A DNA stretch of 64,000 nt from Helicobacter cetorum (GTDB lineage Bacteria > Campylobacterota > Campylobacteria > Campylobacterales > UBA6016). The stretch lies in the NCBI GenBank assembly GCA_022729705.1, contig DZAX01000001.1, positions 1 through 64,000 of the forward strand, in the 5' to 3' direction. Of this stretch, positions 33,940 through 47,780 are shown one piece after another (position 1 is the stretch's first letter; the number at the start of each line of letters is the position of its first letter). The notes beneath the pieces were generated by a model that saw nothing but the letters and a program-made list of their open reading frames with translations, did not search any database and was not told the origin of the DNA. The position numbers were made by a program, and so were the translations under genes.

Positions 33940-34609
33940 ATGAAAATTTTGATTTTGGAAGACGAAACTGTTTTAAACGACGCTATAACCGATTTTTTAA
34001 TAGAGTCTGGGTATGCCGTAAAGCAGTGTTTTGACGGTGATGAAGCTTTTAACGCCGCTTATGAGGGTATATACGATTTGTGGCTTTTGGATGTAAGCGT
34101 GCCGGGAATGGACGGTTTTTCGCTACTAAAAGAGTTGAGAGCGAGCGGCAAAAATACGCCCGCGATATTTATCACCTCTCACCAAAAAAGCAAACGACGT
34201 AAAAATAGGTTTTGACGCAGGAGCGGACGATTATCTCAAAAAGCCTTTTGAGATGACGGAACTACTTGCTAGAATCGAAAATATACGTCGCCGCTCGTTT
34301 GCCCATCTACAACAAGAGCAAGTGATGGTATGCAAAAACGCCTTTTTTGATATAACCAAAGATAGGCTTAGCGTGGATAATGAAAATGTGGAGCTACGCA
34401 AAAAAGAGTTGCTACTTCTCAAACTTCTTTTAAAAAACAGAGGTAAAACGCTTTTATACGAGGAGATATTTGAGGGAGTATGGGAGTATGGCGAGGAGGC
34501 GGGGTTGGAGTCTCTTAGAACCCATATAAAAACGCTAAAGCATAAGCTAAAATGCGATGAGGCGATAGAGAGTGTAAGAGGCCTGGGGTATAGACTTGCG
34601 GGCGGATAA
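33940..34609 (+). pseudogene. OmpR-family response regulator interrupted by a +1 frameshift
   Basis: The first frame (33940-34215) encodes a receiver domain with acidic EDE at 7-9, the phospho-acceptor Asp in WLLDVSVPGMDGF and the Thr/Ser of FITS. It then runs out of frame. The second frame, readable from about 34190, continues ANDVKIGFDAGADDYLKKPF and the winged-helix DNA-binding domain to 34609. Removing one A from the A6 run at 34184-34189 restores the whole ~222-residue protein. The cause may be a sequencing error, a phase-variable tract or true decay. The 3' end overlaps the kinase start, so the pair was a functional two-component operon. Confidence 0.85.
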
Positions 34610-35735
34610 AAGAAGTGTTATTCGGTTTTTTGTCGTTTATTTTGGCTCTTTGGCGGTTTTGTTTGTTTTGATAGGCGGACTCTATTATCAAAACGAAAAA
34701 GAGAGACTAGAGCGTCAAAAACAAGATGAAATGACTGAGTTTGCAAAATCTGTAGAAAATCAATTAGGGGAGCTTCACTTCTCAAAACTACTTGGAAAAC
34801 CGATTAGTCGCAAAGGGTATGGACTGGGGCTGTACGATATAGACGGGGAGGTTGTCTCATCTAAGGATATAAGCGCAAAGCCGCCACTTAAAAAAGCTTT
34901 TTACAAAGAGGGTGACGACTATTATTATGTTTTGGCACTTGATAGATATTTTTTGGGAGTCGCTTTTGTTGCGCTAAAAAGCGCAGTGCCGTCGATGGAT
35001 GGAGTTTTTGCGGCTATTTTTGGCGTTGGATTTGGCGCGCTTACTTTTATGGGGTTCGTCGCCGTGTATTTGGCTAGGCTGATGATAAGACCGCTTGTGT
35101 CGGCTATTGAGAGTGTGGACGCTTTTGTTAAAGATTCTGCCCATGAACTGGCAACGCCTATTATGACGGTGTCAATGGCTTTGAGCGCATTGAGGGCAAA
35201 AGCCGACCCGTCGCTTGAAACGATAGTAAAAAGAATGGAAGTGGGCGTAAAAAATCTGCAAATTATATATGACGAGCTTGCAATGTCCGGCTTTTACGAG
35301 TTTTCCAAGCAGATGAGCGAGAGCGTCGATATGGCGGCTTTGGCGGCGGAGAGGGTAGAGTATTTTGGCGCACTTTTTGAGTACAAAAATATAACCATCC
35401 ATCAAAAACTAACAAGCGCTCCGCTAAAAATAGAGAGAGCCAAGGCGGCAAGGGTGATAGATAATATCCTCTCAAATGCGATCAAATACACAAAAAACGG
35501 CGGAAATGTTTATGTTGAGGCGACTAATGGATTTTTTGGCGTAAGGGACGACGGATACGGTATAGAGGAGTCAAAACTACCAATAATTTTTGATAGGTAC
35601 GCCAGAGCCTCAACAAAAGCGGGAGGTTTTGGAATAGGGCTTGCCACGGTCAAAAAAATCTGCGACGAGTACAGCGTAAAAATAGAGGTAAAGTCAGAAA
35701 AAAACAGAGGGAGCGAGTTTGTCTTTAAGTGGTAA
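34596..35735 (+). CDS. Sensor histidine kinase
   Basis: The 379-residue kinase has membrane helices at ~9-29 and ~137-160 with a short periplasmic sensor between them. A HisKA domain follows (phospho-His in KDSAHELATPIMTVSMAL), then a HATPase domain with an N box (RVIDNILSNAIKYT) and G boxes (VRDDGYGI, GGFGIGLATVKK). The first possible start is a TTG at 34596 inside the regulator gene; a GTG at 34614 is an alternative. It should phosphorylate the frameshifted regulator upstream. Nearby targets may be the DUF1104 protein and the cytochrome. Confidence 0.9.
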   Translation: MRADKRSVIRFFVVYFGSLAVLFVLIGGLYYQNEKERLERQKQDEMTEFAKSVENQLGELHFSKLLGKPISRKGYGLGLYDIDGEVVSSKDISAKPPLKKAFYKEGDDYYYVLALDRYFLGVAFVALKSAVPSMDGVFAAIFGVGFGALTFMGFVAVYLARLMIRPLVSAIESVDAFVKDSAHELATPIMTVSMALSALRAKADPSLETIVKRMEVGVKNLQIIYDELAMSGFYEFSKQMSESVDMAALAAERVEYFGALFEYKNITIHQKLTSAPLKIERAKAARVIDNILSNAIKYTKNGGNVYVEATNGFFGVRDDGYGIEESKLPIIFDRYARASTKAGGFGIGLATVKKICDEYSVKIEVKSEKNRGSEFVFKW

Positions 35736-35739
35736 AAAA

Positions 35740-36072
35740 ATGTTATTCTTGATGCTCTCAACCCTCTCTTTGGCGCAAGGCGGCTCTTTTAAGACGGTGT
35801 GCGTCTCTTGTCATACCAATACAGACGCACCGGATCTTGAGAGTTTTTATTTTCGTTATCTGCTCAAATACGGCTCGCAAAAAAGAGCTTTGGAGGCTAT
35901 GCAAAGCTATCTATCGGTGCCGACTTTTGAAAAATCCCTTCTACCGCCGATGGGGCAAAAACGTTTTGGACTACATCCGGCGAAGCAAATATCAGACATT
36001 GAGCTTAGGGCGGCTTTGGGGGAGTATTTTCGGCGTTATGATGTTAAGGGGAGAGTGGTGATAGCGGACTAA
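35740..36072 (+). CDS. Small monohaem cytochrome c-like protein
   Basis: Starting at the ATG at 35740 the protein has 110 residues: a signal peptide (~1-13) and a single haem-binding CVSCH (C21, C24, H25). The sequence GQKRFGLHPAKQISDIELRAAL may contain the distal ligand region, although the expected Met is not obvious (PPMGQK is a candidate). It starts 4 bp after the kinase gene, so it belongs to the same operon. A role in periplasmic electron transfer or redox sensing is inference. Confidence 0.75.
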   Translation: MLFLMLSTLSLAQGGSFKTVCVSCHTNTDAPDLESFYFRYLLKYGSQKRALEAMQSYLSVPTFEKSLLPPMGQKRFGLHPAKQISDIELRAALGEYFRRYDVKGRVVIAD

Positions 36073-36105: not shown

Positions 36106-36134
36106 GACAAAAAGGTACCGGGTACCTTTTTGTC
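36106..36134. terminator. Perfect 14-bp inverted repeat, probable bidirectional terminator
   Basis: GACAAAAAGGTACC (36106-36119) and GGTACCTTTTTGTC (36121-36134) are exact reverse complements separated by one G. The T5/A5 tracts give a terminator shape on both strands after the cytochrome gene. It also marks the left edge of the IS-rich island, so it may be derived from a transposon end. Confidence 0.55.
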
Positions 36135-36658
36135 AGGACAGTATGGCAAAAAGATTAGCTTTACCTATTTCTCTGCAATAGTTGAACATAAAAATGCTGG
36201 CAAGCTAAAGATTGTTTTTATCAAAACAACAGACAATCTAATCCCTATTGTCTCTACTGATTTAACGCTTAACGATGAAGAGATTATTGAGATTTATAAA
36301 CGAAGGTGGGACAAAAGAACAAGGGTATAAAGAGCTAAGAGAACACTTTGGATTTGGGCAAGAAGAGAATAGAATCTATGAAGCTTTGATTGCAAGAATA
36401 ACACTCTCGTTCTTTGCTTACAATATTACAAGTTACATCAATAGAATGAGCCATGAACCAAAAACCATTGGAGGTTTGTTTAAAGATTTAGAGTGTGAAC
36501 TCTACACTCTTTCTATTGCCATGCAAGCTTTCATAGAGATTATGGACAAAATATCTAAAATTGAGACGATAGTCAATAGGAATAAGGATTTTACGAATAT
36601 CATTGCCTCACTACGGAGCGCGACGGAGGAATTGCTTGGATTTAGGTGCGAAAGATGA
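36135..36658 (+). pseudogene. C-terminal remnant of an IS4-like DDE transposase, frameshifted
   Basis: The first frame encodes GKKISFTYFSAIVEHKN and ends with IVSTDLTLNDEEIIEIYKRR. This is the region with the catalytic Glu and the YKRRW-type signature of DDE transposases of the IS4 kind. Around 36305 the frame shifts, and homology continues as GYKELREHFGFGQEENRIYE to a natural end at 36658 (LLGFRCER). The N-terminal half with the first two catalytic Asp residues is gone. A second remnant of the same or a related element lies at 43563-43792. Confidence 0.8.
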
Positions 36659-36873
36659 GATTATTATATTTACCGCCATACTCTCCAGAGCTCAATATTA
36701 TTGAGATGCTATGGAGGTTCATCAAGTATCATTGGATGGAAATGTCAGCATTTGAAAGTTACGCAAATATGAAGGAATACGTACAGAGAATGCTAAGCGA
36801 ATATGGAGTCAAAAGAGTTATAGATTTTTCGCTATTTGAAAAGAAATTCTACCCTTTAGTGGTTCAAGATTAA
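36655..36873 (+). pseudogene. C-terminal remnant of an IS630-family transposase
   Basis: The fragment LLYLPPYSPELNIIEMLWRF is the diagnostic end of the IS630/Tc1 DDE domain (including the last catalytic acid in NxxE form), followed by about 50 residues of tail. It abuts the IS4-like remnant directly, so one element was cut at the border of the other. No start codon, no N-terminal part and no inverted repeats were recognised. Confidence 0.85.
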
Positions 36874-36898
36874 ATTGGGGTTTGTTTTGGATAGGGAC

Positions 36899-37306
36899 TT
36901 ACTCATAAAGTCTTTTACGCTTTTCAGGGGTTAGCGACTTTCTCTCTCTTTTTGGAATCTTAATGCGTACATCTTCAAGCGCCATACGAAAATCGAATTT
37001 AGCCCCGCTTTTTTTTGAGACGTAACGCAAAAAAACGCTTATACGAACTAGATACGCTTTTTTTGTAGGTTGGGACTGTTTGCCGTTTTTTTGCGCTACC
37101 CAATCCAAAAAATCATATATGAAGTTTTCATCAATATGTGAAGATATGAGCTTGCCACGCTTTTTTTTGTTGAGCAAATCCACATACTCAAAAAAGTATC
37201 TAAACCCAGTTTCGTAGTGTCTTATCGTATGAACGGAGAGATTTTCGTTTTGTTTGGCGCGAATAAACTGCAATCTGTACTTTTTTAACTCGTCTACAAA
37301 GCCCAT
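36899..37306 (-). pseudogene. Truncated tyrosine recombinase: N-terminal SAM-like domain only
   Basis: From the ATG at 37306 (MGFVDELKKYRLQF) about 135 residues resemble the N-terminal DNA-binding domain of phage-type/Xer-like integrases: the ENLSVHTIRHYETGFRYFFE helix, then YLVRISVFLRYVSKK. The frame stops at 36899, just after the SLTPEKRKRLYE linker. The catalytic domain with the Arg-His-Arg-Tyr residues is therefore absent, replaced by the IS630 remnant. The longer open frame up to 37438 includes a 9-bp tandem repeat and is not used. It may be the old integrase of the island. Confidence 0.75.
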
Positions 37307-37412
37307 TTTATCGACCTTAGTAAGTGTTTGAAAGATTATTACTCTATAATCTTTCAAAAAAAAGTATGCAAATTTTAGTTTTAAATTTACGCAACATATT
37401 TTTCTAAATCTT

Positions 37413-37438
37413 AATTCCAATAATTCCAATAATTCCAA
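37413..37438. repeat. 9-bp tandem repeat (about 2.9 copies)
   Basis: The unit AATTCCAAT occurs three times in a row, the last one imperfect, between the integrase remnant and the IS3 remnant. It may be a replication-slippage product or a trace of an insertion junction. Confidence 0.6.
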
Positions 37439-37474
37439 AATGGATAAGATGAAGAAAATAATTAAGGGGTTAAA

Positions 37475-38085
37475 ATGAGTAAAACAAGAACTACGTTTAG
37501 TACAGAATTTAAAACTAAAATTGTGATTGAAGTTTTAAAGGGTGATAAAACATTAGTGAAATAGCAAATGTAAACAATATAACACCAAAGAATATTCAAA
37601 ACCGAAATAGCAATAAAAAACCATATCCATATATTGGACTTCTCGCAAAACCCTCTTCGCTAAGGCTTCACTATGGGTCCCCAAAATCAATAGATTTTGA
37701 CCCTATAGCTCTTTGAAGTGCTCATTTCATAGAGAGTTTTGCAAGAAGTCTATTAAAAGCAAAGGTGGATTTGTATATCTTGCGGCTATTATTGACCGGT
37801 ACTCTAAAGCAAAATGGTATCACTCTCTCTATGGATGGGAAAGGTAGGGCTACTGATAATATTTGTATTGAGAGATTTTGGAGAAGCGCAAAGGTTGAAA
37901 AGATATATCTTAATGAGTACGATATGGTATCAGATTTAAAAGATGATGTAAAAGAGTATATTAACTTTTATAATCATAGAAGATTTCATGAGAGCTTAGA
38001 GTACAAAAAGCCTATGAGCATTTATTGTGATAGTTTAAAAATAAATGATGAAAATTACATGAATATTGGAGAAAATGTAGCATAA
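37475..38085 (+). pseudogene. IS3-family element remnant (orfA and orfB fragments)
   Basis: From the ATG at 37475 the frame reads MSKTRTTFSTEFKTKIVIEV, an IS3 OrfA helix-turn-helix start. One missing base near 37555 breaks it, after which SEIANVNNITPKNIQN continues in another frame. OrfB is represented by KGGFVYLAAIIDRYSKA (integrase core, second Asp), then, after an internal deletion at a TCTAAAGCA-like junction near 37805, by ITLSMDGKGRATDNICIERF (third acid) to the end at 38085. A ~114-bp inverted-repeat element is inserted at 37637-37750. The element is dead. Confidence 0.85.
37637..37750. mobile_element. 114-bp MITE-like element nested in the IS3 remnant
   Basis: The ends GACTTCTCGCAAAAC (37637-37651) and GTTTTGCAAGAAGTC (37736-37750) are inverted repeats with one mismatch in 15. 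The element separates two pieces of the IS3 orfB reading frame (KPYPYI and IKSKGGF), so it inserted after the IS3 did. The interior is non-coding. Confidence 0.6.
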
Positions 38086-38335
38086 AGCAATAGGTGCTTT
38101 AGGGAATAAGATTTTTTAGAGAGTTGTCTTGAGGGTTTGGGGTGCTATATCAACAATAGCTTTTTCATTTTAAACCACCTTTTAATTTTTCTATATACAA
38201 AATAGCCTCATCGGCGACGCTTCGTACGATTTGAGTCCTGTTTGAATCATCCACTAGATTCGTATAGTGTTAGCCCCGCAGAGAGGAGTTCTGCGGTGGT
38301 TAGGTTTTAGGTAAAAATATTTTTGGGACAAATTG
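38086..38335. repeat. Left spacer of cassette copy 1 with truncated start of a periplasmic gene
   Basis: Bases 38151-38323 match 44363-44535 with about ten differences, including hairpin-preserving ones. On the minus strand 38151-38168 is the first six codons (MKKLLL) of the gene that is intact at 43994-44380, here cut by IS3 debris. The block contains a stem CCGCAGA/TCTGCGG at 38282-38302 or thereabouts. In copy 2 one stem base differs but still forms a G-U pair in RNA. The stop codon of the nuclease module lies at its edge in both copies. Confidence 0.75.
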
Positions 38336-38986
38336 TCAAATTTTAGAGCAAAGGGATTTTATTTCTTCGGCTAGAGCCACAACATCGTTGTGATTTTTTA
38401 ACTCTAGTAGCGGTTTGAATTTTATTTTGGCTTTTGAATAATACTCTTTCCAATCAATAAAATTCTCGCTACCTTCTGTGTCTGTCCAGTCCTCGTTTTC
38501 GACTATTATTTCAGTGTCAAAACCTATTTTGCTTTTATCAAAATTTGTATACGTGAATTTTTCATCATCTTCAAGCACGCCTTGACACTCGCCAAAAAAA
38601 TTATCACAATCCACTTTTTTTAAATTCATATCAACAAGTTTGAAACAGCCGTAAGTTATAAGCAAGGGAATTTTTTTATCAATCCCTAGCTGCTCCGTTG
38701 TGGCAATATATTTATCATATTTTAGCAACTCATCGGAAAATACTATATCTATGTTAAAACCAATCAAGTACCCATTTTCGGAGGCTTGCAAATGCTGGTA
38801 GAAAAAGCCATTGCTTTTATCCTCAAATACCGACTTTCCAACAGTCATATCTTTTGAAACTAGATTTTTGCCGCCAAGCTCATTAACCAAGTCATCGTAT
38901 ATGTTTTGGACATCAGCATAAAAATTGATACTCTCCCTTGTCATCGCAACTACATTTTCCATTTTAGTTTTAAGCCCTTGTTCCAT
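38336..38986 (-). CDS. Unknown protein paired with a PD-(D/E)XK nuclease (cassette 1 cargo)
   Basis: I do not recognise this 216-residue protein. It is acidic, with no membrane segment or obvious catalytic motif, and has an N-terminal helix (NVVAMTRESINFYADVQNIY) followed by a mixed alpha/beta region (GYLIGFNIDIVF, KIPLLITYGCFKLVDM). It overlaps the nuclease gene by 17 bp with its own AGGAGG ribosome-binding site, so the two are translated together. It could be a specificity, immunity or partner subunit. It is absent from cassette copy 2. Confidence 0.6.
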   Translation of the reverse strand: MEQGLKTKMENVVAMTRESINFYADVQNIYDDLVNELGGKNLVSKDMTVGKSVFEDKSNGFFYQHLQASENGYLIGFNIDIVFSDELLKYDKYIATTEQLGIDKKIPLLITYGCFKLVDMNLKKVDCDNFFGECQGVLEDDEKFTYTNFDKSKIGFDTEIIVENEDWTDTEGSENFIDWKEYYSKAKIKFKPLLELKNHNDVVALAEEIKSLCSKI

Positions 38987-39671
38987 TGTAAAATCCTCCT
39001 AAGTTATTGAATTGTTGATTTCCTGTATAGTTAAAAAAACCATTGTCATAAAATGAACCGCTTGAAGCCACTGCCGTAAAGTCGCCACTCCATCCATCCC
39101 AAATAGAGCCTATCTTGTAGCTAAGATATTTTTCTATGTGTCTGAGTAGGGCTGATGAGACCAAAGAGTCTGCTTTGTCTATTTCATCCCTTAGAGCATG
39201 ATAAAAATCTCTCCAGCTTAATAAATATACTTTCTCATGCTCTACATACTTCTCTTTTGCCTCTCTTTGATGATCATTAAAAAAAGTCAAATAGACAAGA
39301 TGAGTGCAATGTTCTGCATAATTTGCTAATTGACTTTCATTGCTTTCGCCACTACGATATTTGACTTCCACAATAATTTTCATTTTGTTCTCAAGCTCAA
39401 AATAGACATCAGGCTCGTCTCTCAACCCTTCGTTTTGTTTTGCTTTTTTAAAACTTTCCCATAGCTTAAAACTATCTGGAATAACCCAAGAGCTCGCAAT
39501 AACACCGCCTAGCCTATGGTCATCTTTGATATGTTTTGCTTTCGCCAAAATGTTAATCAAATGTTTTGGAACAATTTGCATCAATCCAAATACATTTGAA
39601 GTCAGCACATCTTCTTGTCTACTTACTGCGACATCTGGTCGAATCTTTCCTCTCATCTCAGCATCAATCAT
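38970..39671 (-). CDS. PD-(D/E)XK nuclease-like protein (cassette 1 cargo)
   Basis: From the ATG at 39671 the protein has 233 residues. AGGAGG sits 5 nt upstream, which rules out the earlier GTG at 39677 that overlaps it. The core EPDVYFELE...KIIVEVKYRSG shows the PD-(D/E)XK pattern with P87, D88, E102 and K104. The C-terminal 45 residues are rich in Gly, Asn, Phe and Tyr. Such nucleases are common in restriction and abortive-infection modules. It starts 52 bp after the gamma-glutamylcyclotransferase-like gene of the same operon. Confidence 0.7.
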   Translation of the reverse strand: MIDAEMRGKIRPDVAVSRQEDVLTSNVFGLMQIVPKHLINILAKAKHIKDDHRLGGVIASSWVIPDSFKLWESFKKAKQNEGLRDEPDVYFELENKMKIIVEVKYRSGESNESQLANYAEHCTHLVYLTFFNDHQREAKEKYVEHEKVYLLSWRDFYHALRDEIDKADSLVSSALLRHIEKYLSYKIGSIWDGWSGDFTAVASSGSFYDNGFFNYTGNQQFNNLGGFYNGTRA

Positions 39672-39723
39672 TATCACCTCCTAAAAAATTTTACACAAAT
39701 CAGCTTCTTAAATCATACCCATC

Positions 39724-40128
39724 TTAAAATAAAAGCTCTTCCAATCCAAAATCCCCATCCATCTCAAACTTATCCAAAAACTGATACTTGTCATATTGTA
39801 TCTTCTCAGCCAAAAAATACGCTGTCGCTTTGACAATAGTTTTGTCTCCCAAGACCACCTCTATCTCTCGCCTTGTGTAGTGGTCTGGATACCCCTCTAG
39901 TTCGTCTAGTCTTTGTATCGTCTGATGTGCTACCTCGTACACTTCGCCATAGACACACAACCCTTCACCCTCTGCGTCTATGAGATACGGGAAAGAGGGG
40001 TATTTACATATCATCGGATACGGGTGCAGTGTTTTGGCGTTTGAGATGAACTTTGAGTTTGCAAGTAATAGATGATTATCAAAGCCCTTTTTGAGCGTAC
40101 CATACACAAAGACTCTAACAGGCGTCAT
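39724..40128 (-). CDS. Gamma-glutamylcyclotransferase (AIG2)-like protein, copy 1
   Basis: From the ATG at 40128 it has 134 residues and opens with the family signature VFVYGTLKKG, the substrate loop, and later shows GEVYEV, LDELEGYPDHYTRRE. These are the marks of GGCT/AIG2 folds, which cyclise gamma-glutamyl amines or peptides. The first Met of the longer frame (16 residues upstream) is rejected because the ATG at 40128 overlaps the preceding gene by an ATGA quartet. Its biological substrate is unknown. An apparently identical copy lies at 45794-46198. Confidence 0.85.
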   Translation of the reverse strand: MTPVRVFVYGTLKKGFDNHLLLANSKFISNAKTLHPYPMICKYPSFPYLIDAEGEGLCVYGEVYEVAHQTIQRLDELEGYPDHYTRREIEVVLGDKTIVKATAYFLAEKIQYDKYQFLDKFEMDGDFGLEELLF

Positions 40129-40541
40129 GGCTGCAAATCTACAATCAAAAAAGTCTGCAACACGCTTTTGCATTTTTCGTCAATATTTGTTAGCTTCAAT
40201 GGATGCCTGTCAGATATTAGTAAAAGCTTTTTGTCTCTTGAGTTTATGTATATACCGAGTAGTTCAAGCAATTTTGCAGAGTCCACAACGGAGTCTTGTA
40301 TCTCATTTATAATCAAAATATCGATTTTCTCCTCGATAAGCGACTCTATTTCTGCCAACGTTCCAGATCCTGCTAATGCTATATCTTTGTCTTCATTTTG
40401 TATGCTTAACTCATCGTAAATTATGTTTAAAGACTGCCTTCTTACCATCTCGTCTTTGCCATAAATAATCATAAGATTATGCGGGCTCGCAAATTTTGCA
40501 AATAACTGAGCAGCTTTGAAAGTAAAACTCTCTTTGTCCAT
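40125..40541 (-). CDS. DnaA/Hda-like degenerate AAA protein, copy 1
   Basis: The 138-residue protein lines up with the AAA+ core of DnaA: NLMIIYGKDEMVRRQSLNII stands where the Walker A helix should be, IDILIINEIQ replaces the Walker B IDDIQF, and LLISDRHPLKLTNIDEKCKS to LIVDLQP matches the sensor-1 to box VII stretch. The P-loop GxxGxGKT is destroyed (GKDEMVRR) and the DD of Walker B is NE, so it probably does not hydrolyse ATP. The C-terminal lid and DNA-binding domains are missing. It may bind DnaA or another AAA+ partner. AAGGAG precedes the ATG. The assignment is by eye. Confidence 0.6.
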   Translation of the reverse strand: MDKESFTFKAAQLFAKFASPHNLMIIYGKDEMVRRQSLNIIYDELSIQNEDKDIALAGSGTLAEIESLIEEKIDILIINEIQDSVVDSAKLLELLGIYINSRDKKLLLISDRHPLKLTNIDEKCKSVLQTFLIVDLQP

Positions 40542-40588
40542 TTATCGCTCCTTGTTGTGCTAGTATTATGGGGAGGCATTCTAAATGA

Positions 40589-40615
40589 CTACCGATTGTA
40601 GCGGTCGATTGGCAT
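40589..40615 (-). CDS. Putative 8-codon leader ORF before the DnaA-like gene, copy 1
   Basis: In the 128-bp gap after the WYL gene, a strong GGAGGAG (rc of 40621-40627) is followed 5 nt later by ATG and eight codons reading MPIDRYNR before a TAG. The peptide is too short to be a classical gene, but the ribosome-binding site is better than those of its neighbours. It could be a regulatory leader peptide or the start of a deleted gene. The same ORF occurs at 46659-46685. Confidence 0.35.
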   Translation of the reverse strand: MPIDRYNR

Positions 40616-40650
40616 ACAAACTCCTCCGTGTGAGTCTGTATTTTAGCGGA

Positions 40651-40674
40651 CTAAGTGGACACTATTTGTCTAGT
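40651..40674. promoter_or_regulatory. Candidate WYL operator, site 1 (GACA-N5-TGTC)
   Basis: This 24-bp sequence overlaps the WYL stop codon and lies 110 bp before the DnaA-like gene. It contains GACA-N5-TGTC and is the near reverse complement (about three mismatches) of 41685-41708, on the other side of the WYL gene. A copy is at 46721-46744. Confidence 0.45.
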
Positions 40675-41587
40675 TTGATATTTCTTCTAAGTAGTCTTGT
40701 ATGGTCGTCTTAAACTCATCCGCCAACCACTGAGGCTCGACGATTTTTACTAGCGGCAAATACCACTGCACAATCGGGAGTATCTCCATCTCGTCTGTGG
40801 CTTCGACGGTTATCTCTGCGCTGCCATTATCGTATCTTGCGCTAAAGCTTTGAGATTTCATCGGCTTTCTCTCGAAATACACTACTGCATCTTTTTCGAT
40901 AAATAGCCTAACTGTAAACGGTTGTTTATGCGGTTGAAACCAAATGGAGTTTGCCTTTGCAAGCCCATTTTCAAGTGACGAGGGTATCTCAAACTTTATA
41001 TCCAAAAGCTCAATATTTTTGAGAGTTTTTAGGTGAAACTTTTTGAAAGTATCTTTTGCCTTTATATCAAACGCCAGCAGATACCAAAAACCATCAAAAA
41101 AAGCCAGCTTTAGCGGTTTTAACTCAAAACTGCCTTTTCGGTAATCACATTTGATGGCTGTTTTGTTTTTTATGGCGTTCTCTAGCGCCGTAAAGCTCTC
41201 TAAATGCTCCGAATTTAGGGCTTCACTATCAATTTTTGCATATATCTGGTGGTTGAGATTTGAGGATATTTGCTCTATCAGATTGTGAGCTTTTAGATAA
41301 AACTGCCTCCCAGCCCCCTTTGCCAGCTCGTCTAGTATTCCTAGCACAATCCCTTCGTCACCTTTGAGCCCCTCACCGGCTTTTGTCTTATCAATTTGCC
41401 AGAGCCTACCCTCGCACACAGCTCCGGCATCTTTTAAGACTTCATGTAAATCTCTTTGAATAGTTTTTGTGCTGACACCCAGCTCTTTTGATAGCTCGGT
41501 GATTGTCGCAGATGTTTTGGAGAGTCTGTCATAGAGATATGAAATTCGCTCAAATTTTGGATTTGAGATTAGTTCTTTTTTTGGCAT
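40670..41587 (-). CDS. WYL-domain transcriptional regulator, copy 1
   Basis: The 305-residue protein has an N-terminal winged helix (ITELSKELGVSTKTIQRDLH at ~33-52) and a WYL domain (KLAFFDGFWYLLAFDIKAKD, with KKFHLKTLKNIELL next) followed by the WCX extension (WYLPLVKIVEPQWL). Regulators of this type sense ligands, often nucleic acid or nucleotides, and frequently govern phage-defence operons. It heads the minus-strand cassette, with a 128-bp gap before the DnaA-like gene. Paired GACA-N5-TGTC dyads lie on either side of the gene. An apparently identical copy is at 46740-47657. Confidence 0.88.
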   Translation of the reverse strand: MPKKELISNPKFERISYLYDRLSKTSATITELSKELGVSTKTIQRDLHEVLKDAGAVCEGRLWQIDKTKAGEGLKGDEGIVLGILDELAKGAGRQFYLKAHNLIEQISSNLNHQIYAKIDSEALNSEHLESFTALENAIKNKTAIKCDYRKGSFELKPLKLAFFDGFWYLLAFDIKAKDTFKKFHLKTLKNIELLDIKFEIPSSLENGLAKANSIWFQPHKQPFTVRLFIEKDAVVYFERKPMKSQSFSARYDNGSAEITVEATDEMEILPIVQWYLPLVKIVEPQWLADEFKTTIQDYLEEISN

Positions 41588-41684
41588 TTTAATTCTTCAA
41601 ACAATGAGATGACTGCACTAGTGCAATAATATGGGTATTTAACTATAAATCATCTTTTGTTTAACTGCTCTATATGCAAAACCA

Positions 41685-41708
41685 ACTAGACAAAAAATGT
41701 CCACTTAG
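41685..41708. promoter_or_regulatory. Candidate WYL operator, site 2 (GACA-N5-TGTC)
   Basis: This site contains GACA-AAAAA-TGTC and matches the reverse complement of 40651-40674 with about three mismatches. It sits in the 233-bp divergent region between the WYL gene and the unknown gene at 41821, so it could regulate both. The region right of copy 2 lacks this site. Confidence 0.45.
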
Positions 41709-41820
41709 ACCTGTAAAATACCTCCAAACTTTTGGGAGCCGGAATCAATACATAAAGCGCCTTATACGCATAAAGAGAGCTTTTGATAGCATAAAATAAA
41801 ATCAAAAAAGGAGAACATAA

Positions 41821-42411
41821 ATGAGTAGCGCACCGACAAGTTTTGCCAAAAATATAAAAGAGGCGGTTGTTGTGTTTTTGGATGATATATCTTTTAGGTC
41901 GCATAGAGAGGTGAGTATTTTGACTCAAATAAGCGAAATTTCGGATGAACAGAGTTTTGTTCTGGTAGTCGGTAAAAAACTTATTTCTTTGGATGCCGTA
42001 CCCCAAGGAAAGCGGTATATGTTTGTTGGAATCACAAAACTCATATATGAAGCCGGACACTACCCGTTTGCGACCTCATTGGCTGTAGCGGATGCCGAAA
42101 CTGCAAAAATAGTTGTAGATGATATTTTGGTCTGCGCCGAAGATGGGGATGCCATCATAATGTCGCCTGATATTTTCGCCGACATAGTAGATGGAAAAAT
42201 GCTCAGAGCCATACCCTTTGACGATAAAAAAAGCCTACAAAACGCAAAAGCTATCTGGTATTGTCCGACGGCTGACAAGGAGCTACCGGAGGTAAATAAA
42301 GCTTTTGGCGAGATATGCGAGCTGGCAAACGAAGAGTGCGACGCTTTTTTTATGGCTTCGAGTTTGAACGGAAGGGAAAAAGACTATTTGATAGCGATAG
42401 ATGAGATATAA
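41821..42411 (+). CDS. Unknown protein, partner of an AAA+ ATPase
   Basis: I do not recognise this 196-residue protein. It seems cytoplasmic, with two halves of alpha/beta character (EQSFVLVVGKKLISL, and DGDAIIMSPDIFADIVDGK) and an acidic C terminus. A good AAGGAG precedes the ATG. It lies 21 bp upstream of an AAA+ ATPase gene and is transcribed divergently from the WYL regulator across a shared intergenic region with a candidate operator, suggesting common control. No close functional analogue comes to mind. Confidence 0.6.
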   Translation: MSSAPTSFAKNIKEAVVVFLDDISFRSHREVSILTQISEISDEQSFVLVVGKKLISLDAVPQGKRYMFVGITKLIYEAGHYPFATSLAVADAETAKIVVDDILVCAEDGDAIIMSPDIFADIVDGKMLRAIPFDDKKSLQNAKAIWYCPTADKELPEVNKAFGEICELANEECDAFFMASSLNGREKDYLIAIDEI

Positions 42412-42432
42412 AAAATCGAGGAGATAAAGCAG

Positions 42433-43530
42433 ATGAACATTCAATTTATATCAGACAATGACAACCAAAATAAGCTTGAAGAGATTTTTGCTAAAAGCCG
42501 TCTGAACGCTTATGCAAAGTTTTGCGAAAAATTTCCCATGAGAGTGCGAAGAGTTGAAATTGTAAATGTCTATAACTGCACGATGCCAAAACTTGTCAAA
42601 CTACTGGAGGAGAGCTATAAAGAGCTATATAGCCCAGAGGCAGATACTTTCTCCATCTTGACGGACGATGGCGTTATGATGATGATATGGTGCGGCGATA
42701 GAGTCTCTTATATTGAGCTAAATTGCTATGTTTACTCGGGCAGCATAGAGCAGTGTCAAAGCGGTATAAGAAATATAAGGGCTCTGCTTGACGAGTATAT
42801 AGTAGCTAGAAGCCAATACGCAAAATCAACTATGAAGTGGTATCAACACAAAAATGGCTTAATAGAATACCGAGCAATCACTCAGGAGATAGCTATTGAC
42901 TATGATTTGGCGCTCAAATATCCATATTTAGAGGAAATTGATAAGCGAATAGAAGATTTTTTGGCCTCTGATAGCTCGGTTTTGCTACTCAAAGGGGAGC
43001 CGGGAACCGGCAAGACATCGCTTATTAGGCAAATAATCGCCAAAAAGTGGCAGATGTCTAGTAAGCTGGATAAAGACTACTATGTAGAAATAGGGTATGC
43101 GACCGATGAAAATGTATTTTTGAGCGACACTTTGTTTGTCGATTATGTCAAGGGGGCTTTTCAGATATTGGCGCTTGAGGACGCCGATTCTTTGCTTCTA
43201 AAAAGGAGCGAAGGAAACAACCATGTCACAAGACTACTAAACTCAACGGACGGGCTTATCAAGGCAAGCGGCAACAAAGTAATCATCTCCACAAATCTAA
43301 AAACATTTGCAGACATCGATACCGCTCTTTTGAGAGAGGGGAGATGCTATGACATCATCGAAACAAAACCTCTCAATTTGGAGCAGACAAAAGCTTTGGC
43401 CAAAAAACTAAAGATACCGACCGATGGTTTTCAAAATTCAAGCTACACGCTAGCGCAGATTTATAAACACAAAGGCGACCGATTTATTAGCTCCATTGAG
43501 AGGAAGCCTGCGGTGGCTGGGTTTAGGTAG
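42433..43530 (+). CDS. AAA+ ATPase with unique N-terminal domain
   Basis: The 365-residue protein has ~170 N-terminal residues of unknown fold, then a classical AAA module: Walker A GEPGTGKT (188-195), Walker B ILALED (245-250), sensor 1 Asn288 in VIISTNLK, and arginine-finger candidates R301/R304 in LLREGRC. The module is closest in feel to BCS1/26S-type AAA ATPases. A 10-bp stem (43525-43534 with 43546-43555) overlaps its stop codon. An IS remnant follows within 35 bp, so slight C-terminal truncation cannot be excluded. It is the partner of the gene at 41821. Confidence 0.75.
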   Translation: MNIQFISDNDNQNKLEEIFAKSRLNAYAKFCEKFPMRVRRVEIVNVYNCTMPKLVKLLEESYKELYSPEADTFSILTDDGVMMMIWCGDRVSYIELNCYVYSGSIEQCQSGIRNIRALLDEYIVARSQYAKSTMKWYQHKNGLIEYRAITQEIAIDYDLALKYPYLEEIDKRIEDFLASDSSVLLLKGEPGTGKTSLIRQIIAKKWQMSSKLDKDYYVEIGYATDENVFLSDTLFVDYVKGAFQILALEDADSLLLKRSEGNNHVTRLLNSTDGLIKASGNKVIISTNLKTFADIDTALLREGRCYDIIETKPLNLEQTKALAKKLKIPTDGFQNSSYTLAQIYKHKGDRFISSIERKPAVAGFR

Positions 43531-43555
43531 AGGGACTTTTAAAGCCCCTCTACCT
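43525..43555. terminator. Hairpin at the end of the AAA+ ATPase gene
   Basis: AGGTAGAGGG (43525-43534) pairs perfectly with CCCTCTACCT (43546-43555) around an 11-nt AT-rich loop, and the stop codon TAG lies in the first arm. It could be a terminator or the terminal repeat of the IS remnant that begins right after it. Confidence 0.5.
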
Positions 43556-43562
43556 CTGTGTC

Positions 43563-43792
43563 CAAGCTACATTAACCGCATAAGCCATGAGCCAAAAACA
43601 TTGGGAGAGTTATTTAGAGATTTAGAGTGTGAACTACAAGCGCTGGTTATTTCAATGGAGAGGTTTCTGCGGATACTGACCGCTATTGCAGAAATTGGCG
43701 AAGTTGTCAAGGAGAATAAAGATTTGTTGAAGATCGTAGCGCTCTTAAGGGCTCATACGCAAAAAGAGTTGGGGGTTGTGTGCGAAAGTTGA
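43563..43792 (+). pseudogene. C-terminal remnant of a second IS4-like transposase
   Basis: About 76 residues (SYINRISHEPKTLGELFRDL, ending in LGVVCES) align with the last part of the transposase remnant at 36135-36658 (YINRMSHEPKTIGGLFKDL, ending in LGFRCER). The two differ at many positions, so they come from different members of one family. There is no start codon and everything upstream is lost. Confidence 0.8.
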
Positions 43793-43993
43793 GTTAGCTA
43801 CTTGATGGGGTTTGAATTTGCAAGTGGCTCTTAAGCTTTTTATTCGTCCACATCGAGCCCCACCGAAGCGCTAATTTAAAAAAAATCAAGTATAGCTTAA
43901 CAAAACTCTCAGCTCCAGACCAAGAGCCAACAAACAACAAAGGTTTTAGTCTCTTTGTTTTGCCTCTCTATAGCTTTTTACTGAAATCTTCTG

Positions 43994-44380
43994 CTATTGA
44001 GAACTCGCTTTTTTCGGCGACCTTAATTTATATTTTCCAGAGACACTTACACCTGATCCGCAGTAGCCCTTTGATTCTATATTGCCGGATATTTCTACAA
44101 AACCGTTGCCAAATTTTATAATCATAATACCGCCCATATCCTCATCTCTATCTCTAAATTCGGCGGTATTTCCGTTTATTGCAGCCTCGCCGTCAAATTG
44201 ACACAAATGTGCGTTCTTGGAATTCATGTTATCCACGGAGAAAGTCAGCTTATCTGCCGATAGTTGTTTTATCTCGATACTACCTACAGTCAAGCCGCCT
44301 TTCATACGATAATCCCCGCTAAAATCTTTTGCCATCAATGCCGCGCAAAATCCCATACTTACCAACAATAGCTTTTTCAT
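43994..44380 (-). CDS. Small periplasmic protein of unknown function
   Basis: From the ATG at 44380 the protein has 128 residues with a signal peptide (MKKLLLVSMGFCAALMA). The mature part looks like an all-beta domain (DYRMKGGLTVGSIEIKQL, HLCQFDGEAAINGNTAEF), with two cysteines that could form a disulfide. A further 29 codons open upstream but belong to the spacer repeat; AAAGGTGG 6-10 nt before 44380 supports the shorter form. Its first 18 bp and upstream spacer are duplicated at 38151-38323. The 43793-43993 stretch downstream shows no gene. Confidence 0.65.
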   Translation of the reverse strand: MKKLLLVSMGFCAALMAKDFSGDYRMKGGLTVGSIEIKQLSADKLTFSVDNMNSKNAHLCQFDGEAAINGNTAEFRDRDEDMGGIMIIKFGNGFVEISGNIESKGYCGSGVSVSGKYKLRSPKKASSQ

Positions 44381-44535
44381 TTCAATCCACCTTTTAATTT
44401 TTTTTATACACAAAATAGCCTCATCGGCGACGCTTCGTACGATTTGAACCCTGCTTGAATCATCCACTAGATTCGTATAGTGTTAGCCCCGCAGAGAGGA
44501 GTTCTGCAGTGGTTAGGTTTTAGGCAAAAAGGTTT
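44381..44535. repeat. Left spacer of cassette copy 2
   Basis: This block matches 38169-38323 with about ten substitutions and one single-base indel. It holds a 7-bp stem near the nuclease stop codon and the ribosome-binding region of the periplasmic gene. It is the common left boundary of the exchangeable nuclease module. Confidence 0.75.
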
Positions 44536-45761
44536 TTTGGGATTTGTCCCAAATAGCCAGTTATCTCATCCGACACAGCTTGAACATTTTTTGCTAATTC
44601 CGTATCATCAAAAAGCCAATAACTTAGATCTTTTGCACTTGTGCAATAAAATTTTACATTCACTTTTGAATCTCCGTATCTGTTATCTTCATCTTTTGAT
44701 TTTAGCCCCATAATATTTGCAATTTTTTCAAAATCAGCTTTTGTTTTATTTGGATATAAATAATAGCTTAGGTTTCCGAGATTAAATTGGTAGATGCAAA
44801 TTACAATATCTTGTCTAGTGATATTTATTCCGGTTATTTCCACGCTTTTATATTTTGATCTTTTGGTATCGATTTCTTTTGCAAGCTCTTCAATTTTTAG
44901 CAAGTCGCCATTTTCATTACGCAGAATTTCGCCATGGTTAATCACCCAGTCTTTAAGTACTTTTTTTTGTTGCGACTCCAGTGTTTCATATAGTGCAGTC
45001 CAAAATTTAGCCTCTCTAAGCGCCCATACATACCCGAGATTTTGAGCCATTTCAGTGGCGGCTTTGGCTCTTTGTGGATTGTTTATCATCTCTACTGTCT
45101 GCATAGTTATCTCCTTTGATGTTTGTCCTGTTATTTTTCGTATCAAGCTGGCATACTGAAGCAAAGTCTCTCTGATTGTAGGTAGAGTTGCGCTTTTTTC
45201 AATGCAAGCTTCAACCCATTCTAAAATATCTGCCAAGAAAGAGAGCTTTTTGTATTCGGTTTGATCGTCGCTTTTTTCATCTCTTGTGCTATCGTCGCTT
45301 GCGTCCCGTCCATCTAGCGTTAGATAGAAAAGTTCTACCGATTTTCTTTTGGTATCGGCATGCTTTTTATAATCAATCAGTTGTTGCGGCTGATCTGAAG
45401 CATCTATCTTCATTTCGATTGCAATAAAATATTTATCATTTTCTATTGTAAAGTCAATACGCCGACCATCATCCGTTGGATCTTCCCGCTTAACTTTTAC
45501 GCCTGTTAAATCAAAATCATTCAAACCTAGAGTGTTACGAATAAATAACCCTAAATACATCGCCCCCTGACAATGAGAGCCGTTTGGGCTAATCATCTCA
45601 AAAATAAATGCGGAGTGTGTCTTAACCTCAAATCTTTCCATCTGCAAAACAGAAAAAATATTAAAGGTTTCCCCTTTTTGTTTTTGAATACTCTCTATAG
45701 TCTCTATTTTCTCTTGAAGCACGATGAGTGCCTTTTGCAGCTCTATCCAGTAGTTGTCCAT
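44520..45761 (-). CDS. PD-(D/E)XK nuclease, PDDEXK_4-like (cassette 2 cargo)
   Basis: The 413-residue protein carries a PD-(D/E)XK core R101-I-D103...E116-M-K118 in the stretches GRRIDFTIE and YFIAIEMKID, preceded by the KTHSAFIFEMISPNGSHCQG region typical of the PDDEXK_4 family (PF14281, from memory). The C-terminal half (~230-413) is a separate domain including NLSYYLYPNKTKADFEK. AGGAGG is 4 nt before the ATG. The family occurs in defence islands, often singly. It replaces the two-gene module of copy 1 behind the same three upstream genes. Its stop codon lies in the shared spacer. Confidence 0.8.
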   Translation of the reverse strand: MDNYWIELQKALIVLQEKIETIESIQKQKGETFNIFSVLQMERFEVKTHSAFIFEMISPNGSHCQGAMYLGLFIRNTLGLNDFDLTGVKVKREDPTDDGRRIDFTIENDKYFIAIEMKIDASDQPQQLIDYKKHADTKRKSVELFYLTLDGRDASDDSTRDEKSDDQTEYKKLSFLADILEWVEACIEKSATLPTIRETLLQYASLIRKITGQTSKEITMQTVEMINNPQRAKAATEMAQNLGYVWALREAKFWTALYETLESQQKKVLKDWVINHGEILRNENGDLLKIEELAKEIDTKRSKYKSVEITGINITRQDIVICIYQFNLGNLSYYLYPNKTKADFEKIANIMGLKSKDEDNRYGDSKVNVKFYCTSAKDLSYWLFDDTELAKNVQAVSDEITGYLGQIPKNLFA

Positions 45762-45793
45762 AAGTCCTCCTAGTTTTTTAAATCATACCCCTC

Positions 45794-46198
45794 TTAAAAT
45801 AAAAGCTCTTCTAATCCAAAATCCCCATCCATCTCAAACTTATCCAAAAACTGATACTTGTCATATTGTATCTTCTCAGCCAAAAAATACGCTGTCGCTT
45901 TGACAATAGTTTTGTCTCCCAAGACCACCTCTATCTCTCGCCTTGTGTAGTGGTCTGGATACCCCTCTAGTTCGTCTAGTCTTTGTATCGTCTGATGTGC
46001 TACCTCGTACACTTCGCCATAGACACACAACCCTTCACCCTCTGCGTCTATGAGATACGGGAAAGAGGGGTATTTACATATCATCGGATACGGGTGCAGT
46101 GTTTTGGCGTTTGAGATGAACTTTGAGTTTGCAAGTAATAGATGATTATCAAAGCCCTTTTTGAGCGTACCATACACAAAGACTCTAACAGGCGTCAT
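45794..46198 (-). CDS. Gamma-glutamylcyclotransferase (AIG2)-like protein, copy 2
   Basis: The protein appears identical to the product of 39724-40128 (134 residues, VFVYGTLKKG signature), with one synonymous base difference near the 3' end. Here it is followed 32 bp later by the PDDEXK_4-like nuclease rather than the two-gene module. The ATGA overlap with the DnaA-like gene is retained. Confidence 0.85.
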   Translation of the reverse strand: MTPVRVFVYGTLKKGFDNHLLLANSKFISNAKTLHPYPMICKYPSFPYLIDAEGEGLCVYGEVYEVAHQTIQRLDELEGYPDHYTRREIEVVLGDKTIVKATAYFLAEKIQYDKYQFLDKFEMDGDFGLEELLF

Positions 46199-46611
46199 GG
46201 CTGCAAATCTACAATCAAAAAAGTCTGCAACACGCTTTTGCATTTTTCGTCAATATTTGTTAGCTTCAATGGATGCCTGTCAGATATTAGTAAAAGCTTT
46301 TTGTCTCTTGAGTTTATGTATATACCGAGTAGTTCAAGCAATTTTGCAGAGTCCACAACGGAGTCTTGTATCTCATTTATAATCAAAATATCGATTTTCT
46401 CCTCGATAAGCGACTCTATTTCTGCCAACGTTCCAGATCCTGCTAATGCTATATCTTTGTCTTCATTTTGTATGCTTAACTCATCGTAAATTATGTTTAA
46501 AGACTGCCTTCTTACCATCTCGTCTTTGCCATAAATAATCATAAGATTATGCGGGCTCGCAAATTTTGCAAATAACTGAGCAGCTTTGAAAGTAAAACTC
46601 TCTTTGTCCAT
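46195..46611 (-). CDS. DnaA/Hda-like degenerate AAA protein, copy 2
   Basis: The protein appears identical to the product of 40125-40541. It has a degenerate Walker A (GKDEMVRR) and Walker B (IINEIQ), and ends at the DnaA-like LIVDLQP. Perfect identity at both loci means either very recent duplication or gene conversion. Confidence 0.6.
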   Translation of the reverse strand: MDKESFTFKAAQLFAKFASPHNLMIIYGKDEMVRRQSLNIIYDELSIQNEDKDIALAGSGTLAEIESLIEEKIDILIINEIQDSVVDSAKLLELLGIYINSRDKKLLLISDRHPLKLTNIDEKCKSVLQTFLIVDLQP

Positions 46612-46658
46612 TTATCGCTCCTTGTTGTGCTAGTATTATGGGGAGGCATTCTAAATGA

Positions 46659-46685
46659 CTACCGATTGTAGCGGTCGATTGGCAT
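46659..46685 (-). CDS. Putative 8-codon leader ORF, copy 2
   Basis: This is the same MPIDRYNR ORF with a GGAGGAG ribosome-binding site as at 40589-40615, in the gap between the WYL gene and the DnaA-like gene. Confidence 0.35.
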   Translation of the reverse strand: MPIDRYNR

Positions 46686-46720
46686 ACAAACTCCTCCGTG
46701 TGAGTCTGTATTTTAGCGGA

Positions 46721-46744
46721 CTAAGTGGACACTATTTGTCTAGT
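46721..46744. promoter_or_regulatory. Candidate WYL operator, copy 2
   Basis: GACA-N5-TGTC dyad overlapping the WYL stop codon, apparently identical to 40651-40674. It is the only such dyad I saw at this copy. Confidence 0.45.
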
Positions 46745-47657
46745 TTGATATTTCTTCTAAGTAGTCTTGTATGGTCGTCTTAAACTCATCCGCCAACCAC
46801 TGAGGCTCGACGATTTTTACTAGCGGCAAATACCACTGCACAATCGGGAGTATCTCCATCTCGTCTGTGGCTTCGACGGTTATCTCTGCGCTGCCATTAT
46901 CGTATCTTGCGCTAAAGCTTTGAGATTTCATCGGCTTTCTCTCGAAATACACTACTGCATCTTTTTCGATAAATAGCCTAACTGTAAACGGTTGTTTATG
47001 CGGTTGAAACCAAATGGAGTTTGCCTTTGCAAGCCCATTTTCAAGTGACGAGGGTATCTCAAACTTTATATCCAAAAGCTCAATATTTTTGAGAGTTTTT
47101 AGGTGAAACTTTTTGAAAGTATCTTTTGCCTTTATATCAAACGCCAGCAGATACCAAAAACCATCAAAAAAAGCCAGCTTTAGCGGTTTTAACTCAAAAC
47201 TGCCTTTTCGGTAATCACATTTGATGGCTGTTTTGTTTTTTATGGCGTTCTCTAGCGCCGTAAAGCTCTCTAAATGCTCCGAATTTAGGGCTTCACTATC
47301 AATTTTTGCATATATCTGGTGGTTGAGATTTGAGGATATTTGCTCTATCAGATTGTGAGCTTTTAGATAAAACTGCCTCCCAGCCCCCTTTGCCAGCTCG
47401 TCTAGTATTCCTAGCACAATCCCTTCGTCACCTTTGAGCCCCTCACCGGCTTTTGTCTTATCAATTTGCCAGAGCCTACCCTCGCACACAGCTCCGGCAT
47501 CTTTTAAGACTTCATGTAAATCTCTTTGAATAGTTTTTGTGCTGACACCCAGCTCTTTTGATAGCTCGGTGATTGTCGCAGATGTTTTGGAGAGTCTGTC
47601 ATAGAGATATGAAATTCGCTCAAATTTTGGATTTGAGATTAGTTCTTTTTTTGGCAT
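46740..47657 (-). CDS. WYL-domain transcriptional regulator, copy 2
   Basis: The 305-residue protein appears identical to the product of 40670-41587, with winged helix plus WYL and WCX regions. Its upstream DNA beyond 47693 is unrelated to that of copy 1, so the two regulators may be expressed at different levels although they should bind the same sites. Confidence 0.88.
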   Translation of the reverse strand: MPKKELISNPKFERISYLYDRLSKTSATITELSKELGVSTKTIQRDLHEVLKDAGAVCEGRLWQIDKTKAGEGLKGDEGIVLGILDELAKGAGRQFYLKAHNLIEQISSNLNHQIYAKIDSEALNSEHLESFTALENAIKNKTAIKCDYRKGSFELKPLKLAFFDGFWYLLAFDIKAKDTFKKFHLKTLKNIELLDIKFEIPSSLENGLAKANSIWFQPHKQPFTVRLFIEKDAVVYFERKPMKSQSFSARYDNGSAEITVEATDEMEILPIVQWYLPLVKIVEPQWLADEFKTTIQDYLEEISN

Positions 47658-47780
47658 TTTAATTCTTCAAACAATGAGATGACTGCACTAGTGTTTATGT
47701 ATGCAGTAATTGGCTAATACATAGTGAATCTAATCTTTTGGTTAGTATAACGTAAATATGCGGTGGAGTGAGTGTGGTTG

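What the first reader, a model, noticed from the sequence alone, without database searches (positions are those of the whole stretch)
38150..47693. Duplicated WYL - DnaA-like - GGCT cassette with exchanged PD-(D/E)XK nuclease modules
Seen: two cassettes 6070 bp apart share an apparently identical 1.9-kb head (WYL regulator, degenerate DnaA-like AAA protein, GGCT-like protein) and a diverged ~170-bp tail spacer, while the genes between them are unrelated. Copy 1 carries a 233-aa PD-(D/E)XK protein plus a 216-aa unknown partner; copy 2 carries one 413-aa PDDEXK_4-like protein. Inference: a constant regulatory or sensing head drives interchangeable nuclease effectors, a design expected of an anti-phage or anti-plasmid system. 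The near-perfect head against the ~6% diverged spacer suggests gene conversion or recent recombination at the head.
Basis: partly seen in the sequence, partly recalled or inferred. Interest (0 to 1): 0.82.

Follow-up and report, generated by a model that had tools for sequence, protein, structure and literature searches.

The report
Twin WYL cassettes with swapped nucleases
A Campylobacterota genome carries two neighbouring copies of one small gene cassette whose regulator half is letter-for-letter identical while the nuclease half has been swapped cleanly for a different nuclease; this looks like ordinary defence-island turnover caught in the act rather than a new kind of system.

Summary
A 1,922-bp head (WYL regulator, DnaA-like protein, GGCT protein) occurs twice, 6,070 bp apart, with 1,881 bp exactly identical. 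A 181-bp tail is 92% identical. Between these arms lie two different payloads with clean gene boundaries: a 233-aa PD-(D/E)XK nuclease plus a 216-aa partner, or one 413-aa PDDEXK_4 nuclease. Both nucleases match phage-defence candidate families.

In 36 related genomes that carry the WYL gene, 17 of 24 PDDEXK_4 loci lie within 8 kb of it (0.22 expected), so the WYL-nuclease link is genuine. Payload 1 also occurs elsewhere without the head, beside the defence system IetAS.

The trio as a conserved sensing head is not supported. The DnaA-like gene was found in no other genome searched. GGCT adjoins WYL in only two others. In most genomes WYL and the nuclease are convergent. No operator could be shown.

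Best reading: an IS-riddled, recently acquired defence island in which a WYL-linked cassette exists as two alleles; homologous arms allowed payload exchange, then the heads were made identical by gene conversion or fresh duplication. The genome is probably a short-read MAG, so a population mixture is possible. New variant of a known kind.

The parts
39702..41623 (-). Head, copy 1 (WYL - DnaA-like - GGCT); exact repeat 39743-41623
45772..47693 (-). Head, copy 2; 99.8% to copy 1
40670..41587 (-). WYL regulator copy 1, 305 aa, HTH-WYL-WCX
   Evidence: Pfam; PADLOC WYL 2e-22; orthologs 45-54%
46740..47657 (-). WYL regulator copy 2, identical protein
40125..40541 (-). Degenerate DnaA/Hda-like AAA domain, 138 aa, no Walker A; copy 1
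   Evidence: Bac_DnaA 7e-6; DnaA domain III 1.4e-4; low-confidence model resembles DnaA/DnaC/Hda
46195..46611 (-). DnaA-like, copy 2, identical
39724..40173 (-). GGCT/AIG2-like protein copy 1; likely start 40128 (ATGA overlap with DnaA-like gene)
   Evidence: PF06094 5e-27
45794..46243 (-). GGCT/AIG2-like protein copy 2
38328..39701 (-). Payload 1 (non-homologous segment), GC 0.351
38970..39671 (-). PD-(D/E)XK nuclease, 233 aa; D88, E102-x-K104, Q114 conserved with a homolog in another genus
   Evidence: PDC-M15A 6e-12; alignment
38336..38986 (-). 216-aa partner of unknown fold, found with the 233-aa nuclease both times so far (n=2)
44541..45771 (-). Payload 2 (non-homologous segment), GC 0.365
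44520..45761 (-). PDDEXK_4 nuclease, 413 aa, catalytic D103, E116-x-K118 intact
   Evidence: PF14281 1.4e-33; PDC-S26 6.5e-72; alignment
38148..38327 (.). Tail arm, copy 1; cut short by IS debris inside the start of a signal-peptide gene
44360..44540 (.). Tail arm, copy 2, 92% identical
43994..44467 (-). Small exported-looking protein downstream of copy 2 (likely ATG 44380); only its first codons survive in copy 1
41821..43530 (+). Two genes between the cassettes: 196-aa unknown and AAA ATPase (phage-type, phrog_14322 3e-46)
36130..38085 (.). Decayed transposases (DDE_Tnp_2, DDE_3, rve) and a truncated tyrosine recombinase bordering the island
40638..40661 (-). IS-end-like 24-nt motif in the 128-bp gap between WYL and DnaA-like; repeated at 46708-46731 (-) and 41698-41721 (+)
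41614..41625 (.). 12-bp palindrome TGCACTAGTGCA upstream of WYL copy 1 (half kept in copy 2), candidate operator only
   Evidence: not above chance

Best explanation
An IS-riddled accessory island, absent at this site in the two known congeners, carries two alleles of one WYL-headed defence cassette side by side. Shown: two homologous arms (head and tail) flank two different, cleanly bounded PD-(D/E)XK payloads, and the heads are identical although the tails and head edges differ by about 8%. Inferred: the two alleles diverged (in different strains or after an old duplication); recombination through the flanking arms exchanged the payload; later gene conversion or a fresh crossover in the head erased its differences. 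Inferred function: the WYL protein is a nucleic-acid- or nucleotide-responsive transcription factor that controls the cassette. On phage or plasmid entry or DNA damage it changes expression of the downstream nuclease, which cuts foreign or stressed-cell DNA. The DnaA-like and GGCT proteins are most likely co-transcribed accessory cargo, not a required sensor.
For: Repeat anatomy. Co-directional genes with good ribosome sites and 32-47-bp gaps to the nuclease. WYL orthologs in 84 of 394 genomes, best 45-54%. 17 of 24 PDDEXK_4 loci within 8 kb of a WYL ortholog, 0.22 expected, in six genera. Aliarcobacter/Arcobacter plasmids with WYL near PD-(D/E)XK and DUF2779 genes. The nearest relatives of the 413-aa nuclease that were examined for context sit by WYL genes. 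Payload-1 pair found alone beside IetAS. Defence-candidate matches. Payload GC 0.35-0.37 against 0.40 for the head. Island absent beside fba in both congeners. WYL profile reaches PafBC 6.6e-9 and DriD 8e-6, whose WYL domains sense ssDNA (PMC11804915, PMC12340889).
Against: No operator or promoter stands out. In most other genomes WYL and the nuclease are not in one operon. The WYL-DnaA-like gap holds an IS-end-like sequence, so the trio may not be an evolved unit. No read data. No functional test. WYL linkage is phylogenetically clustered (13 of 17 linked loci are in two genera).
Confidence: 0.55

Rival explanations
1. Plain defence-island turnover: the head genes and nucleases are neighbours by accumulation, the head is duplicated by chance recombination, and WYL does not regulate either nuclease.
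For: Trio not conserved anywhere; WYL-nuclease mostly convergent elsewhere; IS debris throughout and inside the head; GGCT and the intervening AAA gene match phage protein families; payload-1 pair lives without the head.
Against: Clean payload boundaries between two homologous arms; nuclease replaced by nuclease; WYL-PDDEXK_4 linkage far above chance.
Confidence: 0.25
2. Assembly or population effect: a single chromosomal cassette plus a second molecule (a 6,070-bp circle or another strain's allele) was laid out as a tandem. With a shared head, the graph for 'left-head-mid-head-right' is the same as for a chromosome with one head plus a circle of head+mid.
For: 75 contigs, 2.56% contamination and no 16S found, typical of a short-read MAG; a 1,881-bp exact repeat cannot be bridged by ordinary short inserts.
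Against: Every junction must be present in reads for the contig to exist, and the only linear path through such a loop is the reported tandem. Tails and head edges differ, so the two cassettes are truly distinct sequences. No phage or plasmid copy was found.
Confidence: 0.15
3. The head is a gating or antidote module: the DnaA-like and GGCT proteins restrain or target the nuclease (for example towards replicating DNA), and the cassette acts as an abortive or toxin-antitoxin-like system.
For: Head conserved to the base while payload changes; DnaA-like and GGCT overlap by ATGA (translational coupling); DnaA fold resemblance.
Against: Identity reflects recency, not selection; DnaA-like lacks Walker A and has no orthologs; homologous nucleases elsewhere lack both genes.
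Confidence: 0.05

Closest known systems
BrxR/CapW WYL regulators of phage-defence islands (PMC9122601, PMC9122588)
   Same: wHTH-WYL-WCX architecture; WYL gene at the head of a defence-type gene set; one regulator type linked to many unrelated defence systems.
   Different: Only distant sequence similarity (BrxR 0.024, CapW 0.14 by profile); no ~20-bp operator above chance; mostly not the first gene of the nuclease operon in relatives.
DriD/PafBC WYL activators (PMC12340889, PMC6789036, PMC11804915)
   Same: Best solved-structure matches of the WYL profile; suggests a nucleic-acid ligand.
   Different: Those are chromosomal DNA-damage activators, not linked to swapped nucleases; ligand and direction of control untested here.
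PADLOC PDC-S26 (PDDEXK_4)
   Same: 413-aa protein matches almost end to end (10-404 of 413, E 6.5e-72) with intact catalytic residues.
   Different: Found here as payload of a WYL-headed cassette.
PADLOC PDC-M15A
   Same: 233-aa nuclease matches over its first 131 residues (6e-12), as does its homolog in another genus (1.4e-12).
   Different: The 216-aa partner matches no PADLOC model, so membership in a full M15 system is not shown.
Small DnaA/Hda-like proteins (e.g. PDB 2kjq, NMB1076)
   Same: About 140-aa AAA-like core; best fold match of a low-confidence model.
   Different: No Walker A motif; function unknown.

Membership tests
BrxR/CapW-type WYL regulator | N-terminal wHTH, WYL and WCX domains | tested here: met
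   WYL and WCX above cut-off, HTH_11 24.8 against cut-off 25
BrxR/CapW-type WYL regulator | Sequence homology to BrxR at E<1e-5 (criterion of PMC9122601) | tested here: not met
   Single sequence finds no BrxR or CapW in the PDB at E<1; profile: BrxR 0.024, CapW 0.14
BrxR/CapW-type WYL regulator | Inverted-repeat operator of about 20 bp upstream | tested here: inconclusive
   Near-palindromes present but as frequent in shuffles; TGCACTAGTGCA at 41614
BrxR/CapW-type WYL regulator | Represses the downstream defence operon and is relieved by a ligand | not testable with these tools
   needs expression assays
PDDEXK_4 / PDC-S26 nuclease | Family profile and D...ExK residues | tested here: met
   PF14281 116.8 bits against 22.3; D103, E116, K118 invariant in 10 homologs
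PDC-M15 candidate system | Component A nuclease | tested here: met
   6e-12, partial; D88, E102, K104, Q114 conserved
PDC-M15 candidate system | Partner component(s) matching the system's models | tested here: not met
   216-aa partner and its homolog match no PADLOC model
DnaA/Hda AAA+ ATPase | AAA+ core with Walker A and B | tested here: not met
   Walker B/sensor-1 region matched (72-134); P-loop replaced by YGKDEMVRRQS; 138 aa, no DNA-binding domain
GGCT (AIG2-like) | PF06094 profile | tested here: met
   95.2 bits against cut-off 22.8; enzyme activity not tested

The most novel reading that the evidence does not exclude
A two-slot modular anti-phage or anti-plasmid system: a fixed WYL/DnaA-like/GGCT head that senses stalled or foreign replication and into whose downstream slot different PD-(D/E)XK nucleases are exchanged by recombination between constant arms, with two armed copies kept in tandem and their heads held identical by gene conversion.
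Probability: 0.1. Interest if true: 0.7.

Novelty: new variant of a known kind. Interest (0 to 1): 0.42.

Why it matters
It is a clean snapshot of how a defence cassette changes weapon: identical controller, homologous tail, nuclease replaced by nuclease with gene-exact borders. The wider result, that PDDEXK_4 nucleases in Campylobacterota cluster tightly around one WYL lineage, makes a specific regulator-effector pairing testable in culturable species (Arcobacter-type plasmids carry it).

Tried and rejected
Conserved trio: searched the DnaA-like protein in 397 genomes, 72,556 plasmids, the viral contigs and the genome-contig collection. Only true DnaA genes were found.

Mobile-element origin of the head: no terminal repeats or multi-copy behaviour, two copies only. 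The 38-bp inverted pair around WYL copy 1 (40638-40675 / 41684-41721) looks like IS-end debris and is missing from copy 2.

Tail arm as a genome-wide repeat: no, two copies only.

BrxR-like operators: not above shuffles.

WYL-GGCT as an ancestral pair: the window WYL groups with family f8 (99/96), not with the GGCT-linked f4 WYLs.

Structure of the 216-aa partner: pLDDT 40, unusable.

PDB hit of the partner to an S-layer lipoprotein (6e-4 over 59 residues): too short and acidic to use.

Relation of the two nucleases: hhalign matches only the ExK core (35 columns, probability 18.5%). They share the superfamily, not a closer family.

Phage or plasmid copies of payload 1 or of the partner: none.
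Full report
OBSERVATION. The window lies on contig C16 (158,941 bp) of a 2.19-Mb, 75-contig genome. A blastn self-comparison confirms two direct repeats. The head, 39702-41623, matches 45772-47693 with 4 mismatches in 1,922 bp. All four sit in the first 41 bp (39704, 39707, 39721, 39742), so 39743-41623 is an exact 1,881-bp repeat. The tail, 38148-38327, matches 44360-44540 at 92%. Neither repeat occurs elsewhere in the genome, apart from a 38-bp piece of the head.

GENES. On the minus strand each head encodes a 305-aa HTH-WYL-WCX regulator, a 138-aa protein with the Walker B/sensor-1 part of DnaA but no Walker A, and a GGCT/AIG2 protein overlapping it by ATGA. A low-confidence model (pLDDT 55) of the DnaA-like protein resembles DnaA, DnaC and Hda, in line with the sequence match to DnaA domain III (1.4e-4). 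Payload 1 (38328-39701) is a 233-aa PD-(D/E)XK protein (PDC-M15A, 6e-12) and a 216-aa protein with no family. Payload 2 (44541-45771) is a 413-aa PDDEXK_4 protein (PF14281 1.4e-33; PDC-S26 6.5e-72). Catalytic residues are intact in both. Both nuclease genes have an AGGAGG-type ribosome site and start 32-47 bp after GGCT.

HISTORY READ FROM THE SEQUENCE. Because homologous arms lie on both sides of non-homologous payloads with gene-exact borders, a payload was exchanged within a shared framework. Differences are 13/181 in the tail and 4/41 at the head edge, but 0/1,881 in the head. At the arm rate about 144 would be expected, so the heads became identical after the arms had diverged (gene conversion or a recent crossover or duplication; inference). 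Copy 1 is cut by IS debris inside the start of a small signal-peptide gene that is intact next to copy 2. The region 36.1-38.1 kb and 43.5-43.8 kb holds decayed transposases and a truncated tyrosine recombinase (43.5-43.8 kb by its 75-81% DNA match to the fragment at 36.4 kb). In both congeners the gene fba is followed by hisD instead of the cassette, and they have no close WYL ortholog: 37% and a 93-residue fragment at best. The island is therefore an acquisition or a local rearrangement of this lineage. Payload GC is 0.35-0.37 against 0.40 in the head.

ASSEMBLY. No 16S gene was found and contamination is 2.56%, which suggests a short-read MAG. The path left-head-mid-head-right is the only linear walk through the corresponding graph, but one chromosomal head plus a 6,070-bp circle would give the same graph. 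I could not examine reads.

DISTRIBUTION OF THE PARTS. WYL: 84 of 394 Campylobacterota genomes have a match at E<=1e-20, the best at 45-54% identity; also on Arcobacter/Aliarcobacter plasmids. The window WYL groups with three genomes of family f8 (99/96). DnaA-like: no ortholog; only full-length DnaA genes at 2e-5 or worse. The single hit in the genome-contig collection is itself a DnaA gene beside dnaN, recF and gyrB. GGCT: 19 matches in 40 genomes; outside the window it lies near WYL only in G315 and G253, one genus. Payload 1: one homologous pair (57-60% and 39% identity, same order and overlap) in G250, next to IetAS and a Fic protein, with no head. PDDEXK_4: in 36 genomes with WYL, 17 of 24 loci are within 8 kb of a WYL ortholog against 0.22 expected, in six genera. 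Eight are in one genus and five in another, so the nominal Poisson value of 1.6e-26 overstates independence. Orientation: 12 convergent, 2 divergent, 2 same-strand upstream, 1 (G336) same-strand downstream as in the window.

MECHANISM. Established elsewhere: WYL regulators of this architecture control defence operons as repressors relieved on infection (CapW, PMC9122588; BrxR, PMC9122601) or act as ssDNA-triggered activators (DriD, PMC12340889; PafBC, PMC11804915). The window family is closer in sequence to PafBC and DriD than to BrxR or CapW, though distant from all. I therefore propose, as inference, that the WYL protein senses a nucleic-acid or nucleotide signal and raises expression of the downstream nuclease, which attacks DNA. 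The direction of control is unknown. No operator could be shown: near-palindromes are as common in shuffles, and TGCACTAGTGCA at 41614 is only a candidate. The DnaA-like and GGCT genes are best treated as cargo. They are not shared with other WYL-nuclease loci, the gap before them carries an IS-end-like sequence, and GGCT also occurs as a phage moron family.

COMPARISON AND VERDICT. What it works like: BrxR/CapW-headed defence islands with changing content. Whether it is a member: the domain architecture is met, the published BrxR homology threshold is not met, and the operator test is inconclusive. The nucleases belong to PDDEXK_4/PDC-S26 (met) and PDC-M15A (component A only). The finding is real and instructive but a variant of a known pattern. 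Its most useful outcome is the statistical WYL-PDDEXK_4 link and a clean example of payload exchange.

Noticed in passing
L058-L103 (WYL loci of other Campylobacterota): WYL orthologs recur with a shifting set: two-AAA 701-aa protein (PADLOC IetA-like 3e-40), SIR2, histone-deacetylase-like, PAD_porph/agmatine-deiminase-like, DUF2779 (Cas4-like), metallophosphatase, DUF262-like and two unnamed families found in 13-15 loci each. A possible undescribed WYL-centred accessory locus.
   Followed up: partly
L084:4251-10065: Homologs of payload 1 sit beside a tyrosine recombinase and IetAS in G250, a defence island without WYL.
   Followed up: yes
window 41821-43530: Divergent 196-aa protein and AAA ATPase between the cassettes; the ATPase matches phage family phrog_14322 at 3e-46; its last residues run into repeat-like DNA shared with the tail arms (GAGAGGA..CTGCGGTGG).
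   Followed up: partly
L109:7965-16288: Aliarcobacter cibarius plasmid pACIB carries three WYL genes in 8 kb, two of them about 52% identical to the window WYL, a precedent for several WYL copies together.
   Followed up: no
L125:671-5656 (G000 contig C2): Another WCX/WYL-type regulator beside an unannotated 401-aa protein (CARF-like by eye) and a RAMP protein, probably a type III CRISPR locus in the same genome.
   Followed up: no
window 33940-36072 and L066:9882-12038: The response regulator, kinase and small cytochrome-like gene left of the island are also next to a WYL-GGCT locus in G315, a shared insertion neighbourhood in another family.
   Followed up: partly
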